From an uncultured Bacteroidia bacterium (GTDB lineage Bacteria > Bacteroidota > Bacteroidia > JANWVE01), in NCBI GenBank assembly GCA_938028625.1, contig CALIZB010000169.1, positions 1 through 36,189 on the forward strand: 36,189 nucleotides of DNA, read 5' to 3'. The translations under genes and the position numbers were made by a program. Positions 17,695 to 26,066 of this stretch are shown here, piece by piece; position 1 is the first letter of the stretch; each line of letters starts with the position of its first letter. The notes beneath the pieces were generated by a model that was not told where the DNA came from, did no database searches, and worked only from the letters and a program-made list of their open reading frames with translations.

Positions 17695-18320
17695 CTATAA
17701 GTCAACAGGTATTTCTTTGATAGTACTGAGTTTACAGTATATTTGTTCATAAGTTGGTTTTTGTGTAAATATGTCACTAGCAATACTGTCTATTTTTTCT
17801 TTGGTTACCTTAATGGCTTGTTCAGATTGGTCTATGCCTATCCAATTTCTACCTAAAAGTTGTGCGGACTTCAAAGTTGTTCCCGAACCACAAAAATAGT
17901 CTAAAACATAACTGCTTGGTTTTGATGAAGTTTTAATAATTAAATCTAATAAATCTGCGTTTTTTCTGTTGGGTATAGCGGATATTGTGGGTCTTTCATT
18001 TCCCAGATATCTTGTATTCGTTTTCCTTCTTGCTTGTCTAAATAAATTTTCTTGCGTGGATTGCCGTTGTCTGACCACTCAATAAGCCCTTGTTTGTCCC
18101 AAATTTTTAAGCCTAATGCTTTTTTGTTGAGCCACCTGCGGAAAAAGGGTCCGATTTGTCGGTTTGTTTCTTTGGGTTCGGTGCGTTTCTCAAAAATCTT
18201 ATCAAGTCCCATTTGGTACAGCCTTCCGCAAATTCGGTTTATTGTCTTGGGATTTCTTTCTATTGTAGCACTATCACGTTTCAGAAAAGCAATGTAACTG
18301 TTTTTGATAGGAAATAAACT
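17695..18320 (-). pseudogene. Remnant of a restriction-modification locus (DNA methyltransferase C-terminus)
   Basis: Two overlapping minus-strand frames read as one broken gene. The first (open from 18320, with no good start) contains RNPKTINRI and KETNRQIGPFFRRWL, which look like the N-terminal part of a type II restriction endonuclease, then a methyltransferase segment ending DIWEMKDPQYPLYPTEK. The second frame continues NADLLDLIIKTSSKPSS and the AdoMet-binding motif LDYFCGSGTT, then GRNWIGIDQSEQAI, and stops at 17695. The frames join at a run of six T on the + strand (17960-17965); one extra base would restore EKNADLL. The DPPY catalytic motif and the whole N-terminal half of the methyltransferase are absent, so the remnant should be inactive. 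A stop (18321-18323) and prfB bound it. Confidence 0.75.
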
Positions 18321-18340: not shown

Positions 18341-19439
18341 CTAAATTGTTCCTCCCTTTGCACTACCAAATTCCATGAGATAGGCTTTAATAAATGGTGT
18401 AATATCGCCGTTCATTACAGCGTCTACGTTGGAAGTTTCGTAGCCTGTTCTGTGGTCTTTTACGCGTCTATCATCAAAAACATAACTGCGAATCTGACTG
18501 CCCCACCCAATTTCTTTTTTACTGTTTTCTAATTTTTCTTTCTCTGCCTGACGTTTTTCTAATTCTATTTGATATAATCGGCTTTTTAGCATTTTTATGG
18601 CTCGTTCTCTGTTTTGCAATTGAGATCGCTCTTCTTGACAAGCTACCACAATTCCCGTAGGAATATGCGTAATACGTACGGCTGTTTCTACTTTGTTTAC
18701 GTTCTGACCACCTTTGCCCCCTGCACGATAGGTATCCATTTGTATATCTGCGGGATTAATTTCAATTTCTATGGTATCATCAATTTCAGGATAGACAAAA
18801 ACTGATGCGAATGATGTATGCCTACGTGCATTAGCATCAAACGGAGATATGCGCACTAATCTATGCACACCTACTTCGGACTTTAAATAGCCATACGCAA
18901 AATCGCCTTCTATACTTAATGTACAACTTTTAATTCCTGCGCCTTCACCTATCTGCTCTTCTAATAAATGGACTTTGAAGCCATTTTTTTCTGCCCACAT
19001 GGTATACATGCGCATGAGCATTTCTGCCCAGTCCTGACTTTCTGTACCGCCTGCTCCCGCATTGATAGTAAGAATAGCATTGAGTTTATCTTCTTCTTTA
19101 CTCATCATGTTTCTGAATTCTACCTCTTCTAAAAAACCTAATGCCTTCTGATAAGATTGTTCTAATTCTTGTTCAGAAATTCCTTCTTCTTTGGATATTT
19201 CATAATTCAAGATTAAGTCCTGCACTAAACTGTCCAACTCTTCATACAGTTTTACCCATATTTTGAGGGATTTAATTTCCTTTAATACATTTTCAGCAGA
19301 TTTAGGATTATCCCAAAAGTCTTGTGCATAAGTGATATTTTCTAATTCCTGAATTTTACTTTGTTTAGCATCAACGTCAAAGATACCTCCTTAACGCATC
19401 TGTGCGTTGTAATATGTTCTGATATTGCTCGTAAGTCAT
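18341..19439 (-). CDS. prfB: Peptide chain release factor 2, programmed +1 frameshift
   Basis: The gene starts at the ATG at 19439, runs 20 codons to an in-frame TGA (19377-19379), shifts +1 and continues to 18341, giving 365 residues, the E. coli length. The shift site reads CTT TGA C, preceded by AGGAGG (19386-19391 on the complementary strand) with a 3-base spacer, the classical autoregulatory layout: scarce RF2 slows termination at TGA and favours frameshifting. The product has the RF2 codon-recognition tripeptide SPF ([14 protein letters not shown]) and the catalytic GGQ in [11 protein letters not shown]. It releases peptides at UGA and UAA. A -7 box lies 5 bases before the start. Confidence 0.95.
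19376..19391 (-). promoter_or_regulatory. prfB recoding site (Shine-Dalgarno, slippery CTT, TGA, C)
   Basis: The minus strand reads AGGAGG TAT CTT TGA C across this interval. The Shine-Dalgarno-like element stimulates +1 slippage of the CTT-decoding tRNA; the zero-frame TGA followed by C is the weak stop read by RF2 itself. Confidence 0.93.
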
Positions 19440-20562: not shown

Positions 20563-20604
20563 TATAACAGACAAGAAAAATGTTTTTGTTGCTTCAAAAA
20601 CAGT

Positions 20605-20980
20605 TATAAAATCTTTTTATTTAGTTGTTGTTTTCTTTTTCTGTTTTGTAAATATTTTGCACAGAAATTCTCTGACGGCAGTGTTGTAAAATATACAGGC
20701 AGTGTAGGTTCTAATTCTATTGAAATGACTCTTATGCAGTCGCAGATTGATATTTCTGGTTTTTATTTTTATACAAAAGTAAGACAACCCATATAGTTAA
20801 GTTCATAAATGGGTATAATTAACAAGAATTACACAAAGTTTACTGAAAAGGTAGGAGGTAATATAACCGGATATTTTTTTTCTCAAAGATTTTGATATAG
20901 AAACGAGTTCAACGGTATATGGCACATGGAAATCTCCTGACGGAAAAAAATCCTTTTCTATTGTTCTGTACAGAAAGTAA
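20605..20980 (+). pseudogene. Decayed gene for a small secreted protein
   Basis: Translation of the gap shows a coherent but broken protein. A hydrophobic signal-like start (KIFLFSCCFLFLF) leads to FAQKFSDGSVVKYTGSVG, SIEMTLMQSQIDISGFYFY and KVRQPI, then TAG (20794-20796). The same frame continues through TAA (20806-20808) to KFTEKVGGNITGYF. After a frameshift near 20885-20895 it resumes as DFDIETSSTVYGTWKSPDGK and ends LYRK at 20980. The pattern YTG...IEMTL...GYYYY...G.W.SPDGKKSF is one I associate with small secreted Bacteroidota proteins. There is no start codon at the expected place. Two stops plus one frameshift make it inactive. Confidence 0.65.
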
Positions 20981-21236
20981 CTTGTAACGATTTTTTTTTG
21001 TATTTTTACAAAAAAGTCAGTTTTTATGGATAGAAAATTCTATCTTAAAATACTGGGGCAACTCTGTTTGTTTATTGTACAGATTTTTTATAATTTGTAC
21101 ACTTTCTATATAAAAAGTTTATGACGTAGAAAAACACCATAAAAAACAAAACTTTAACAGTTTTGCTTAATACAGCCCTATAGAAAAACATCTTTTCTAT
21201 TGATTTTTTGCACAAGAGCATATATTTTTACCTTCT
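20981..21236 (+). other. A+T-rich leader region of the helicase fusion gene
   Basis: No credible gene is present; a 32-codon open frame at 21026-21124 has no support. A near-consensus -7 box TATTTTTA (21223-21230, one mismatch) ends 6 bases before the ATG at 21237, and a TTTTTTG lies at 21204-21210, but the spacing between them is short (12 bases). Confidence 0.4.
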
Positions 21237-24200
21237 ATGAACACTTATATGCATTCCGTTATATTTATTGACACAGAAATTGAATATAAAAGCAAAAAAA
21301 TTCTTGACATAGGTGCGATTAAGGATAACAATGATATTTTCCACAAAAACTCACTGCCTGAGTTTATACAGTTTCTTAATGGTAATCAGTTTATCTGCGG
21401 GCATAATATTCTTCATCATGATATACAGTATATAGGTCATGCAATAGACAGTGCAGGTATACCCCGTCAAAATATTATTGATACATTATTTCTCTCACCT
21501 TTGTTTTTCCCCACACACCCCAGCCATGCTTTGTTAAAAGATGATAAAATATACTCTGAAGAAGCCAACAATCCGCTTAATGATGCGATTAAAGCAAAGG
21601 ATTTGTTTTATGATGAAGTTGCTGTTTTCAGTCAGACTGATGAAACTTTTAAACAGATACTTTATTTGCTGTTGCATAACAGTGAAGAGTTCTGTGCTTT
21701 TTTTAACTTTCTCAATTATCAGAGTGAACCGAAAGAACTTCAAGCGTTAATTTATCAGAAATTTGAAAACGAAATCTGCACACAGGCAGACCTATCAAAA
21801 ATATTATCAGAGTTTCCTGTTGAACTTGCCTACTGCCTGTCATTGATTGAGGCTTTTGTAAAACAGAAAAAAAGCTTTTCTACCCTGCCCCCATGGGTAT
21901 TAAAAAACTATCCTCATACAGAGCATATACTGCATACTTTGCGAGATAAACCCTGCATAAGCGGGTGCATATACTGTGATAAAGCATTAAACCCGCACAA
22001 GGCATTAAAAAAGTACTTCGGATTTGATGCGTTCAGAACATACAACGGAGAACCTTTGCAGGAAAATGCGATCAAAGCGGCAGTTCATCACAAATCATTG
22101 CTGGCTGTTTTTCCCACAGGGGGTGGAAAATCTATTACTTTTCAGATACCTGCTCTTATGAGCGGCGAAAACACTAGAGGACTTACGGTTGTTATTTCTC
22201 CTTTACAGTCCCTGATGAAAGACCAGGTAGACAACCTTGAAAAAACAGGCATTACGGAAGCGGTTACTATCAATGGTTTGCTTGATCCTGTTGAACGGGC
22301 AAAATCTTTACAAAGGGTAGAAGACGGCAGTGCTTGCATTTTGTATATTTCACCAGAATCACTCCGTTCAAAAACTATTGAACAACTTATTCTGGGAAGA
22401 AACATCAGCCGTTTTGTTATTGATGAAGCTCACTGTTTTTCTTCATGGGGACAGGATTTTCGTGTGGATTATCTTTATATCGGGGATTTTATAAGACACA
22501 TTCAGGAAACAAGAAACTTGCACGAAAGAATTCCTGTTTCTTGCTTTACTGCCACAGCAAAACAAAAAGTAATTGAAGATATCTGCCGTTATTTCAAGGA
22601 AAAACTCTCGCTTGACCTTGAAATTTATACTACAAAAACAGCAAGAACCAACCTTACATACAAAGTTTTTGAGAAAAAAGACGAAGAAAAATATCAGGCA
22701 CTCAGGGATTTGATTGAAAAAAAAGCCTGTCCGACTATTGTATATGTATCCAGAACTCATAAAGCCTCTCAACTTGCATTATGGTTAAATAAAGACGGGT
22801 TTAAGGCCAAGGCCTATCATGGCAAAATGGACACCAATGAAAAAACTGCTAGTCAGAATGCTTTTATCTCAGGGGAAGTTTCTATTATGGTAGCCACTTC
22901 TGCTTTTGGAATGGGCGTTGACAAAAAAGATGTAGGTATGGTTATTCACTATGAGATTTCAGACTCGTTAGAAAACTATATTCAGGAAGCAGGGAGGGCG
23001 GGGCGTGATGAAAATATTACCGCAGAATGCTTTGTTTTATTTAATGAAGATGATATTGACAAGCATTTTATTTTACTTAATCAGACTAAACTCTCCATCA
23101 AAGAAATAAAACAGGTCTGGAAAGCTATCAAGGAAATTACAAGATTTCGGTCAAAGGTTTCCATTTCAGCTCTGGAAATTGCACGCAAGGCAGGCTGGGA
23201 CGACAGCATTGCGGATATTGAGACACGCATAACGAGTACAATTGCCGCTCTGGAAGATGCAGGATACCTTAGGCGGGGACAAAATACGCCAAGGGTTTTT
23301 GCTACCAGTATCCTTTCTAAAAACGTTCAGGAAGCCATTGATAAAATCAATGCGTCAGTACATTTTGAGGATAAACAGAAAGAAAAAGCTATACGCATTA
23401 TAAAAAAACTTTTTGCCCAGAAAAGCAGAAAAAACCTCAGTGAAGAAACCCCTGAATCAAGGATTGATTATATCAGCGACCATCTCGGCATTGTTAAAGA
23501 TGAAGTTATAAGTATTGTCAATCTGTTACGGGAAGAAAAAATCCTTGGAAACACAAAGGATTTGACAGCGTTTATCAAAACAAAAGACAACAAAAACCGC
23601 TCCCTGAATATTCTTCAAAACTTTTGCAAGATTGAAAACTTTCTCATTTCTGTCTTTCAAGAAGAAGAAACACATTTTTCTCTTAAAGAACTCAAACAGC
23701 AGGCTGAAACGAGCGAATGCGGGGAAATAAAAATTCCCCAGCTGATAACCCTCATCAACTTCTGGAAAATCAAAAAATGGATTAAGCACCAGAATTATGA
23801 GCATTCTAAAAACCATATTTCTGTTCTTTTACTCTCTCCGAAAGAAAAACTCAAAGAAAAACTTCAAAAACGGCATATTCTCGCAAAACTTATAACAGAA
23901 TATCTGTATAAAAAAATGACAATCCATGCTTCAAAAGAAGACGAAACCCAAGAACAGATTCTGGTCGAGTTTTCTGTTTATGAATTAAAGGAAACCTTTG
24001 AAAAGCAAAATGAACTTTTTCAGGAACAGGTATCTTATGAAGATATTGAAGACGCACTGCTCTACCTTTCAAAAATTGATGCTATAGACCTTGAGGGTGG
24101 GTTTCTGGTAATTTACAATCGCCTGACTATTGAGCGATTAGAGCAGAACAATAAAAAACAATATACCGAAGAAGACTATCACAAACTTAAACAGTTTTAT

Positions 24201-26066
24201 GAAAACAAAATTCAGCAAATTCATATTGTGAGTGAGTATGCAAAAAAAATGATTACAGATTACAAAATCGCTTTGCAGTTTGTAGAAGATTATTTTCAGC
24301 TTAATTACAGTTCTTTTCTTAAAAAGTATTTTCCGGATAGTAAAAATGAAGAAATCAGGTTAAAAATAACTCCCCGAAAATTCAGACAGATTTTTGGAGA
24401 ACTCTCTGCGGCACAACTTAACATTATAAATGACAATCAATCCCAGTACATAGTGGTTGCCGCAGGACCAGGAAGCGGTAAAACCAGAGTGCTAGTTCAT
24501 AAACTTGCTTCTCTGATTTTTATGGAAGATATAAAATATGAACAACTGCTCATGCTTACGTTTTCAAGAGCGGCGGCTACCGAGTTCAAAAAACGCTTGC
24601 TGAACCTTATTGGAAGCGCCGCAAACTATATTGAAATAAAAACGTTTCATTCTTACTGCTTTGATTTACTGGGCAACATTGGCAGCCTGGAGAAATCAGA
24701 TGAAATTATAAGAAAAACCATTGCAAAAATTAGAAACAAGGATGTGGAAACCAACCGAATTACGAAAACGGTTCTTGTTATTGATGAAGCACAAGATATG
24801 AGCGAAACAGAGTTTGGTCTTGTAAAAATCCTTATGGAACAGAACGAAGACATGAGAGTAATTGCCGTAGGTGATGATGATCAAAATATTTATGAGTTCA
24901 GAGGTGCAAATTCAAAATATCTTAAAGAATTTATTACTCTCAGTAACGCAAAAAAATATGAACTGACCGAAAATTACAGAAGCAAAAACAACCTTGTACA
25001 CTTTGCCAGTCAGTACGTAAAACAAATTAAAAACAGATTAAAAGAAAACCCTGTCTTTGCAAAACAAACCGAAAATGGCACAATACAATTATTTCGCTAC
25101 CAGAACGGTAATTTTTTGGTTCCTTTTGTACAGGATATTCTTACTACTGACCTTACAGGTACAACTTGTATTATCACTAAAACTAATGAAGAAGCCTTGC
25201 AGGTTACAGGACTTCTTTTACAAAACAATATTCCCGCAAAACTCATTCAGAACAATGACGGGTTTAATTTGTATAATCTATTGGAAATGAGGTTTTTCTT
25301 ACAACAATTACACACTCATGGCAATACTGTTGTTATCTCTGATGAAGTATGGGAAAACGCAAAACAAGCATTAAAAAATACTTTTCACAGAAGTACAAAA
25401 TTAGAAATATGCTCTCTGATGATACAGAATTTTGAAACGGTTAATCCCAAAAAGAAATACTTTTCTGACCTAGAAACTTTTATCCGAGAGTCTAAACCCG
25501 AAGACTTTTTGAGTGTAGACCGTGAAACGGTTTTTGTTTCTACCATTCATAAAACCAAAGGAAAAGAGTTTGACACAGTGTTTCTGCTTCTTCAAAATTT
25601 TACTCCGAGCACAGAAGAGGAAAAAAGGCAGGTATATGTAGCTATGACAAGGGCAAAAAATACCTTGCATATTCATCTTAATTCCAGTTTTTTGGATACC
25701 TTCACAGCAGAAAACCTATACCGTACTGAAAAAAATGGAACATATCCTGTTCCTGACACACTGTTCCTGCACCCGGGTCTTAAAGATGTATGGCTGGATT
25801 ATCTTATAACAAAACAGCATCTTGTTGATGAGCTTATGAGCGGAGATGACTTAGAAGTAAGAGATTTTGAATGCCTGAACCAGAAAGGGTATTCAGTGCT
25901 GAAATTTTCCAAAGGATTTACTGAAAAAATTGAAGAACTGAAAAAGAAAAACTATTTTCTCAGAAGCGCAAAAGTCAATTTTATTGTATACTGGCTTAAA
26001 GAAGGTACTGAAAAAGAAATAAAAATTGTATTGCCTGAACTTTATTTTCAAAAAGCAGGCAAATAA
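21237..26066 (+). CDS. Exonuclease-RecQ-UvrD fusion helicase
   Basis: 1609 residues with three enzymatic modules. (1) Residues ~5-130: DnaQ-like 3'-5' exonuclease with FIDTE (D12, E14), GHNILHHD (55-62) and NNPLNDA (D116); the usual catalytic His before the last Asp is Asn. (2) A possible metal site, C240/C244/C247, then a RecQ helicase: PTGGGKS (293-299), DEAHC (396-400) with the aromatic loop FSSWGQDFR, FTATA, and QEAGRAGRD (583-591). RecQ's usual zinc cysteines after motif VI are absent. (3) A ~430-residue middle with winged-helix-like segments, then a UvrD/Rep SF1A helicase: GPGSGKT (1077-1083), DEAQD (1183-1187), GDDDQNIYEFRG, ENYRS, TIHKTKGKEFD and VAMTRAK (1468-1474). Cytoplasmic DNA repair or anti-phage processing is the likely role, but its biology is not established. 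Confidence 0.92.
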   Translation: MNTYMHSVIFIDTEIEYKSKKILDIGAIKDNNDIFHKNSLPEFIQFLNGNQFICGHNILHHDIQYIGHAIDSAGIPRQNIIDTLFLSPLFFPTHPSHALLKDDKIYSEEANNPLNDAIKAKDLFYDEVAVFSQTDETFKQILYLLLHNSEEFCAFFNFLNYQSEPKELQALIYQKFENEICTQADLSKILSEFPVELAYCLSLIEAFVKQKKSFSTLPPWVLKNYPHTEHILHTLRDKPCISGCIYCDKALNPHKALKKYFGFDAFRTYNGEPLQENAIKAAVHHKSLLAVFPTGGGKSITFQIPALMSGENTRGLTVVISPLQSLMKDQVDNLEKTGITEAVTINGLLDPVERAKSLQRVEDGSACILYISPESLRSKTIEQLILGRNISRFVIDEAHCFSSWGQDFRVDYLYIGDFIRHIQETRNLHERIPVSCFTATAKQKVIEDICRYFKEKLSLDLEIYTTKTARTNLTYKVFEKKDEEKYQALRDLIEKKACPTIVYVSRTHKASQLALWLNKDGFKAKAYHGKMDTNEKTASQNAFISGEVSIMVATSAFGMGVDKKDVGMVIHYEISDSLENYIQEAGRAGRDENITAECFVLFNEDDIDKHFILLNQTKLSIKEIKQVWKAIKEITRFRSKVSISALEIARKAGWDDSIADIETRITSTIAALEDAGYLRRGQNTPRVFATSILSKNVQEAIDKINASVHFEDKQKEKAIRIIKKLFAQKSRKNLSEETPESRIDYISDHLGIVKDEVISIVNLLREEKILGNTKDLTAFIKTKDNKNRSLNILQNFCKIENFLISVFQEEETHFSLKELKQQAETSECGEIKIPQLITLINFWKIKKWIKHQNYEHSKNHISVLLLSPKEKLKEKLQKRHILAKLITEYLYKKMTIHASKEDETQEQILVEFSVYELKETFEKQNELFQEQVSYEDIEDALLYLSKIDAIDLEGGFLVIYNRLTIERLEQNNKKQYTEEDYHKLKQFYENKIQQIHIVSEYAKKMITDYKIALQFVEDYFQLNYSSFLKKYFPDSKNEEIRLKITPRKFRQIFGELSAAQLNIINDNQSQYIVVAAGPGSGKTRVLVHKLASLIFMEDIKYEQLLMLTFSRAAATEFKKRLLNLIGSAANYIEIKTFHSYCFDLLGNIGSLEKSDEIIRKTIAKIRNKDVETNRITKTVLVIDEAQDMSETEFGLVKILMEQNEDMRVIAVGDDDQNIYEFRGANSKYLKEFITLSNAKKYELTENYRSKNNLVHFASQYVKQIKNRLKENPVFAKQTENGTIQLFRYQNGNFLVPFVQDILTTDLTGTTCIITKTNEEALQVTGLLLQNNIPAKLIQNNDGFNLYNLLEMRFFLQQLHTHGNTVVISDEVWENAKQALKNTFHRSTKLEICSLMIQNFETVNPKKKYFSDLETFIRESKPEDFLSVDRETVFVSTIHKTKGKEFDTVFLLLQNFTPSTEEEKRQVYVAMTRAKNTLHIHLNSSFLDTFTAENLYRTEKNGTYPVPDTLFLHPGLKDVWLDYLITKQHLVDELMSGDDLEVRDFECLNQKGYSVLKFSKGFTEKIEELKKKNYFLRSAKVNFIVYWLKEGTEKEIKIVLPELYFQKAGK

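What the first reader, a model, noticed from the sequence alone, without database searches (positions are those of the whole stretch)
21237..26066. Single protein joining a DnaQ-like exonuclease, RecQ and a UvrD/Rep helicase
The sequence shows complete motif sets for an SF2 RecQ helicase and an SF1A UvrD helicase plus an N-terminal DEDD exonuclease in one uninterrupted 1609-codon frame. RecQ and Rep/UvrD translocate 3'-5' on ssDNA in characterised members, so two motors of like polarity with a 3'-5' nuclease could load on opposite strands of a fork or end, as RecBCD does with two helicases and a nuclease. Its place near an R-M scar and a dead gene is compatible with an accessory or anti-phage role, but that is inference. 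Long RecQ-family proteins of this type exist in databases as I recall; I know of no defined function.
Basis: partly seen in the sequence, partly recalled or inferred. Interest (0 to 1): 0.78.

Follow-up and report, generated by a model that had tools for sequence, protein, structure and literature searches.

The report
Exonuclease–RecQ–UvrD helicase fusion protein
One very large bacterial protein carries a DNA-chewing exonuclease-like domain and two different DNA-unwinding motors; the gene jumps between bacteria, tends to sit near anti-virus genes, and belongs to a family that no paper we could search describes, so it is a good candidate for a new kind of bacterial defence enzyme, although its function is untested.

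Summary
In detail: window 21237-26066 (+) is one 1609-codon frame encoding a DnaQ-like domain, a RecQ core and a UvrD-like motor. Full-length single-ORF relatives occur in Bacteroidota, Campylobacterota, Cyanobacteria and Proteobacteria, often on plasmids. All regions evolve under purifying selection.

New details: (1) the exonuclease keeps its four metal-binding acids (D12, E14, D62, D116), but the catalytic His of DEDDh enzymes is Asn111 in nearly every relative. (2) Four Cys (181, 240, 244, 247) behave as a unit, kept in most relatives and lost together in two lineages: a probable metal or Fe-S site. (3) The RecQ core lacks the Zn/RQC/HRDC extension and the UvrD motor lacks the 1B insertion.

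The gene is accessory: 15 of 396 Bacteroidota genomes have it, its two sampled congeners lack it, and its divergence does not follow housekeeping genes. It has no conserved partner. Its neighbours hit many more PADLOC defence models than control genes, and type I HsdM lies within 10 kb in 3 of 17 genomes.

The RecBCD analogy fails as stated, because RecBCD uses motors of opposite polarity. Best reading: a stand-alone, mobile DNA end/fork-processing enzyme, probably defensive. No function has been tested; no literature was found.

The parts
21237..26066 (+). full gene: DnaQ-like / Cys4 connector / RecQ / linker / UvrD-like / beta C-terminal domain, 1609 aa
   Evidence: single-ORF relatives
21258..21635 (+). 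DnaQ-like exonuclease domain, residues 8-133
   Evidence: motifs invariant; RNase H-like secondary structure in the AF2 model; weak PDB profile hits to DnaQ-fold exonucleases
21270..21278 (+). ExoI motif D12-x-E14
   Evidence: invariant 20/20 and 19/19 in a second, overlapping set
21399..21422 (+). ExoII motif GHN....D, residues 55-62
   Evidence: invariant
21567..21584 (+). ExoIII region N111-N-P-x-N-D116: Asn where DEDDh enzymes have His
   Evidence: N111 and D116 invariant 20/20, 18/19; HMM alignment to 9l85_A puts N opposite its H and D opposite D
21777..21977 (+). Cys4 connector: C181, C240, C244, C247, predicted metal or Fe-S ligand set
   Evidence: all four in 18/20 and 19/19; all lost in L051 and three of four lost in L050
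21999..23132 (+). RecQ SF2 helicase core, residues 255-632 (Walker A 293-299, DEAH 396-399, motif VI 583-590)
   Evidence: TIGR00614 284.7 bits, cut-off 219.8; closest solved structure RECQL5
23133..24386 (+). family-specific linker, residues 633-1050; helical with short beta pairs (winged-helix-like), no RecQ Zn/RQC/HRDC match
   Evidence: TIGR01389 match ends at position 352 of 591; AF2 model; only weak hits in the PDB, the best to small DNA-binding regulators
24399..25691 (+). UvrD/Rep-like SF1A helicase, residues 1055-1485 (Walker A 1076-1083, DEAQD 1183-1187, GDDDQ 1212-1216, motif VI 1467-1473), without the 1B insertion
   Evidence: Pfam; Foldseek to UvrD/PcrA/Rep, then AdnAB/AddAB/RecB/GajB; 25 aa versus about 108 aa at the 1B site in the genome's own UvrD
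25722..26054 (+). beta-rich C-terminal domain, residues about 1496-1606, unidentified
   Evidence: AF2 secondary structure; conserved across phyla; no HIRAN match
17695..18078 (-). truncated N6_N4 DNA methyltransferase remnant, 3.2 kb upstream
   Evidence: PF01555 positions 159-221 of 221; in-frame TGA in the six-frame match

Best explanation
SHOWN: this is a member of a widespread family of large single-gene proteins, undescribed in the literature searched. Each joins a divergent DnaQ-like exonuclease domain, a Cys4 connector, a stripped RecQ core, a family-specific linker and a compact UvrD-like motor. The gene is accessory, moves horizontally, has no conserved partner, and lies in defence-rich or mobile neighbourhoods more often than control genes. 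INFERRED: the protein is a self-sufficient DNA end/fork-processing machine used mainly against foreign DNA. The likely sequence of events is that the Cys4/linker part engages a non-self intermediate such as an unprotected end, a gap or a phage or plasmid fork. The RecQ and UvrD motors, both expected to run 3'-5', then strip and unwind it, moving in tandem on one strand or diverging from a gap or fork. The exonuclease trims the exposed 3' end, or only holds it if the Asn variant has lost catalysis. The foreign molecule fails to circularise or replicate.
For: Architecture and motifs. Spread: Bacteroidota, plasmids of Aliarcobacter, cyanobacteria, alpha- and gammaproteobacteria. Patchy: 15/396 Bacteroidota genomes, absent from both congeners. 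Horizontal transfer: helicase identity is uncorrelated with EF-Ts (rho -0.10, P 0.72) or RF2 (rho 0.31, P 0.24); for example G090 is 70% in the helicase and 53% in EF-Ts, while G180 is 42% and 53%. Neighbourhood: 126 neighbours hit 135 PADLOC models at E<=1e-20, against 24 models for 123 control genes, about 20 of those from one UvrD helicase. Near neighbours include a type I methyltransferase, a GmrSD-like enzyme, a type II REase-like protein and a dGTPase, RhuM, and two candidate methyltransferases in L079. HsdM lies within 10 kb in 3/17 genomes: expected 0.17-0.28, Poisson P 0.0007-0.003. Thiothrix: type I-D CRISPR genes about 5 kb away. Pseudanabaena: WYL regulator next door and a large DEAD/DEAH helicase 5 kb away. 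No conserved partner. Purifying selection in every region, exonuclease included.
Against: There is no functional data. No full-length PADLOC model was seen among the best 25 hits. Many relatives, including this window (prfB, an aminotransferase and tsf around it), sit beside ordinary genes. PADLOC model counts are inflated by redundant models, and the output did not give per-protein counts for all neighbours. Control genes were drawn from a subset of the same genomes, not matched one to one. Defence islands, mobile elements and repair cargo overlap in location. The exonuclease may be inactive (His to Asn). Motor polarity is taken from family knowledge, not tested.
Confidence: 0.5

Rival explanations
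1. It is a mobile-element maintenance enzyme: plasmids and integrative elements carry it to repair, restart or process their own replication or transfer intermediates, and chromosomal copies are remnants of such elements.
For: Plasmid copies in several bacterial lineages; directly beside parAB and the rep region in Aliarcobacter and near ParA/ParG/SSB genes in a Bacteroides finegoldii record; neighbours of IMG/VR copies are rich in integrases, ParB-like proteins and DNA methyltransferases.
Against: No consistent linkage to rep, relaxase or par genes and no recurrent neighbour at all; many chromosomal copies lack obvious element genes; restriction genes are enriched near it.
Confidence: 0.25
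2. It is an auxiliary chromosomal repair enzyme, a bacterial WRN-like exonuclease-helicase with a second motor, that resolves stalled forks or recombination intermediates and is transferred because it gives damage tolerance.
For: Exonuclease-RecQ order as in WRN; RecQ core closest to RECQL5 and E. coli RecQ; strong purifying selection in all regions; many copies beside housekeeping genes.
Against: Very patchy, absent from congeners; the genome has its own RecQ and UvrD; lacks RQC/HRDC; restriction-rich neighbourhoods.
Confidence: 0.2
3. A mechanistic alternative that can go with any of the roles above: the DnaQ-like domain is catalytically dead and only binds 3' ends, so the protein is a pure dual-motor translocase or remodeller.
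For: The DEDDh His is Asn in essentially all members; one member (L082) also lost the fourth acid.
Against: The four acids are invariant across relatives of only about 28% identity, and dN/dS of the domain is 0.03-0.18.
Confidence: 0.35

Closest known systems
WRN (human exonuclease-RecQ helicase)
   Same: N-terminal DEDD-type exonuclease followed by a RecQ core in one chain
   Different: WRN has the DEDDy tyrosine, RQC and HRDC (established knowledge); this family has Asn at the DEDDh His position, no RQC/HRDC match, a Cys4 connector and a second, SF1A motor
RecQ family helicases (E. coli RecQ, RECQL5)
   Same: complete SF2 core; TIGR00614 above cut-off; best PDB relative RECQL5
   Different: no Zn/RQC/HRDC; embedded in a 1609-aa multi-enzyme chain
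UvrD/PcrA/Rep (SF1A)
   Same: all signature motifs; best Foldseek hits
   Different: 1B insertion missing; well below all equivalog cut-offs; carries an extra C-terminal beta domain
ExoDinG (B. subtilis and S. aureus DinG; PMC12525004, PMC12345164)
   Same: DnaQ-type 3'-5' exonuclease fused to an SF2 helicase
   Different: DinG is XPD-like, reported 5'-3' in S. aureus DinG; no RecQ and no UvrD part
RecBCD / AddAB / AdnAB
   Same: helicase plus nuclease acting on DNA; UvrD part resembles their motors
   Different: RecBCD combines motors of opposite polarity and a PD-(D/E)XK nuclease in separate subunits (established knowledge)
Gabija (GajB) and Hna
   Same: helicase-nuclease defence; GajB is a UvrD-like helicase; Hna is a single-gene helicase-nuclease defence protein (PMC13381803)
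   Different: GajB works with GajA; Hna has an SF2 helicase and a PD-(D/E)XK nuclease (845 aa), no RecQ and no UvrD part
DpdF / PsyrT-type RecQ defence helicases
   Same: RecQ core scores highly to these PADLOC models
   Different: match covers the RecQ core only; no recurrent Dpd or DprA partner

Membership tests
RecQ helicase subfamily | SF2 RecQ core motifs, TIGR00614 above cut-off | tested here: met
   284.7 bits, cut-off 219.8; motifs invariant
RecQ helicase subfamily | Zn-binding/RQC and HRDC domains of canonical RecQ | tested here: not met
   TIGR01389 match ends at 352/591, 316.9 bits against cut-off 640.2
UvrD/Rep SF1A helicase | UvrD_N and UvrD_C motifs | tested here: met
   PF00580 115.5 bits (cut-off 23), PF13361 69.3 bits (cut-off 25.6)
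UvrD/Rep SF1A helicase | 1B insertion between motifs Ia and II | tested here: not met
   25 aa here versus about 108 aa in the genome's own UvrD
DEDDh exonuclease | four acidic residues of ExoI-III | tested here: met
   invariant 20/20; 18/19 for D116
DEDDh exonuclease | catalytic His five residues before the last Asp | tested here: not met
   Asn111 in 20/20; HMM alignment
DEDDh exonuclease | Pfam RNase_T match | tested here: not met
   no match above noise
DEDDh exonuclease | 3'-5' exonuclease activity | not testable with these tools
   needs biochemistry
WRN | exonuclease then RecQ core in one chain | tested here: met
WRN | DEDDy Tyr and HRDC | tested here: not met
   position 112 is Asn or Asp; no HRDC match
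RecBCD-like | two motors of opposite polarity plus PD-(D/E)XK nuclease | tested here: inconclusive
   no PD-(D/E)XK family match; polarity inferred only from RecQ/UvrD family knowledge
Gabija | adjacent GajA | tested here: not met
   no recurrent neighbour in about 50 loci
Catalogued PADLOC defence system | a model covering the whole protein | tested here: not met
   the best 25 hits each cover one helicase module
Vertically inherited core gene | uniform presence and divergence tracking housekeeping genes | tested here: not met
   15/396 genomes; no correlation with EF-Ts or RF2
Anti-phage defence system | protects cells against phage | not testable with these tools
   needs phage assays

The most novel reading that the evidence does not exclude
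A new class of single-gene bacterial immune effector: a WRN-like exonuclease-RecQ joined through a metal-binding connector to a second SF1A motor, with a conserved Asn variant of the DEDD active site, that recognises and dismantles foreign DNA ends or forks without any partner protein.
Probability: 0.3. Interest if true: 0.8.

Novelty: new variant of a known kind. Interest (0 to 1): 0.6.

Why it matters
Two motors from different superfamilies plus a nuclease fold in one chain is an unusual machine and a ready test bed for how like-polarity motors cooperate. The invariant His-to-Asn change asks whether a DEDD nuclease can work without its usual base. If the protein is defensive, it adds a widespread family that NCBI labels only 'RecQ family ATP-dependent DNA helicase' and that current defence catalogues appear to miss.

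Tried and rejected
HIRAN identity for the C-terminal domain: suspected by eye, no Pfam HIRAN match in the gene in 17 genomes. RNase_T membership: not seen. Clean empty site in congeners: tsf and the next gene are conserved, but the other flank differs in both, so the site is only a synteny breakpoint. Conserved partner gene: none. E. coli carriage: 55 genomes hit over a short stretch, but the two inspected are a different, roughly 700-aa RecQ next to DprA. Phage carriage: no isolate phage record has a place covering 80% or more and the linker finds none; IMG/VR copies lie with integrases and methyltransferases, with no virion genes among the 25 commonest families. Literature: seven searches gave no description of this fusion. 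Foreign base composition: gene GC 35.8% against 35.0% for the rest of the window, so uninformative.

Full report
OBSERVATION. The frame 21237-26066 (+) is a real 1609-codon gene. Pfam finds an SF2 core (DEAD 273-448, Helicase_C 484-590) and an SF1A core (UvrD-helicase, UvrD_C), all above cut-off. NCBIfam accepts the RecQ subfamily (TIGR00614, 284.7 bits, cut-off 219.8) but not canonical RecQ, PcrA, UvrD or Rep equivalogs. The N-terminal domain is invisible to Pfam RNase_T, yet it carries invariant D12, E14, GHN...D62 and D116. It folds in AlphaFold2 as the beta-beta-beta-alpha-beta-alpha core of DnaQ-like enzymes (mean pLDDT 81.8 for residues 1-700; the loop at 100-108 is below 50). Its profile weakly finds solved DnaQ-fold exonucleases (E 0.015-0.14).

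NOT AN ARTEFACT. Full-length single-frame relatives were found in Flavobacterium and Chitinophagales (66-70% identity), Bacteroidales (about 48%), an Aliarcobacter plasmid (about 34%), and plasmids of cyanobacteria, alphaproteobacteria and Thiothrix (about 28%). Pairwise dN/dS is 0.03-0.28 in every region, including exonuclease, connector, linker and C-terminal domain.

ANATOMY. (a) Exonuclease: in 38 of the 39 rows of the two alignments (which share eight sequences), the residue five before the last Asp, His in DEDDh enzymes, is Asn111; the exception, L082, has Lys and has also lost the last Asp. The HMM alignment to 9l85_A places this Asn opposite a His and the Asp opposite an Asp. (b) Connector: C181, C240, C244 and C247 are all present in 18/20 and 19/19 rows. 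Nostoc L051 has none; Aliarcobacter L050 lost three. Joint retention and loss suggests one metal or Fe-S site; this is inference. (c) The RecQ core lacks the Zn/RQC/HRDC extension and is closest to RECQL5 and E. coli RecQ. (d) A family-specific linker of about 420 residues; only weak PDB hits. (e) A compact UvrD-like motor missing the 1B insertion (25 aa against about 108 aa in the genome's own UvrD). Its structural relatives are UvrD, PcrA and Rep, then AdnAB, AddAB, RecB and GajB. (f) An unidentified beta-rich C-terminal domain; a HIRAN guess was tested and not supported. Chemical motifs of both motors are intact, so both are expected to be active ATPases (inference).

DISTRIBUTION. 15 of 396 sampled Bacteroidota genomes carry it, scattered over 12 of 172 genera. 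Both sampled congeners of the host lack it. Identity of the helicase to other genomes does not track EF-Ts or RF2 identity (rho -0.10 and 0.31): a genome of another class (G090) shares 70% in the helicase but 53% in EF-Ts, while G180, equally distant by EF-Ts, shares 42%. This supports horizontal transfer. A linker query finds 22 plasmid records. No isolate phage record carries a full-length copy. About 14 IMG/VR contigs carry it, next to integrases, methyltransferases and ParB-like genes rather than obvious virion genes.

NEIGHBOURHOOD. No gene recurs as a partner over about 50 loci, so the protein is probably self-sufficient. For 26 Bacteroidota members, 126 neighbours (within three genes) matched 135 PADLOC models at E<=1e-20; 123 control genes from the same genomes matched 24, about 20 of which come from one UvrD helicase. 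These are model counts, inflated by redundancy, not gene counts. Named neighbours include a type I methyltransferase next door (L160), a GmrSD-like protein next door (L163), a type II REase-like protein (L018), a dGTPase (L014), RhuM near four copies and two candidate methyltransferases in L079, one confirmed by Pfam. Type I HsdM lies within 10 kb in 3 of 17 genomes against 0.17-0.28 expected (P 0.0007-0.003). On plasmids, one copy is about 5 kb from a type I-D CRISPR locus, one follows a WYL regulator near a large DEAD/DEAH helicase, and one abuts parAB. In this window the nearest defence trace is a broken methyltransferase. The gene lies at a synteny breakpoint beside tsf.

MECHANISM. Shown: domain content, conserved motifs, accessory status, defence-biased context. 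Inferred: the protein acts alone on DNA ends, gaps or forks. Characterised RecQ and UvrD relatives move 3'-5' (established knowledge), so the two motors would either run in tandem on one strand or diverge from a gap or fork. They cannot mimic RecB plus RecD, which have opposite polarities. A 3'-5' exonuclease would trim the strand the motors track, as WRN's arrangement suggests, unless the Asn variant only binds 3' ends. The most likely biological use is against foreign DNA (0.5), ahead of mobile-element self-maintenance (0.25) and auxiliary repair (0.2).

KNOWN OR NEW. Modules are known and NCBI names such proteins 'RecQ family ATP-dependent DNA helicase', but seven searches of the held literature found no description of this three-part fusion. 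The main text of the DefensePredictor paper (PMC13092281) does not mention RecQ, UvrD or helicases. Subscription papers and supplements were not searchable, so an existing description cannot be excluded. I class it as a new variant of the helicase-nuclease kind, with function untested.

Noticed in passing
window 19376-19392 (-): prfB next to the gene carries what looks like the canonical programmed +1 frameshift site (AAGGAGGTATCTTTGAC on the minus strand), which explains why the listed ORF starts late.
   Followed up: partly
L198 9560-16332 and L197 9567-12988 (E. coli 2/0 and SCU-102): Accessory RecQ helicase plus DprA pairs (PsyrTA-like), one embedded between hsdS and hsdR of a type I R-M operon, the other on an integrase-bearing island at a tRNA-Thr.
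   Followed up: no
L082 7929-12869: A family member in an IMG/VR contig that lost the fourth exonuclease acid (D116 to Cys, N111 to Lys), a possible nuclease-dead natural variant.
   Followed up: no
plasmid NZ_CP046704.1 99381-104935 (Nostoc sp. ATCC 53789): A family member appears split by an IS1634 transposase gene, a naturally disrupted copy.
   Followed up: no
L160 354-7378 (-): Directly downstream of a family member: type I methyltransferase, then further same-strand genes, two of which resemble a GmrSD-like protein.
   Followed up: partly
window 20563-21236: AT-rich (27.6% GC) 674-bp non-coding stretch before the gene; no recognisable remnant gene was found.
   Followed up: partly
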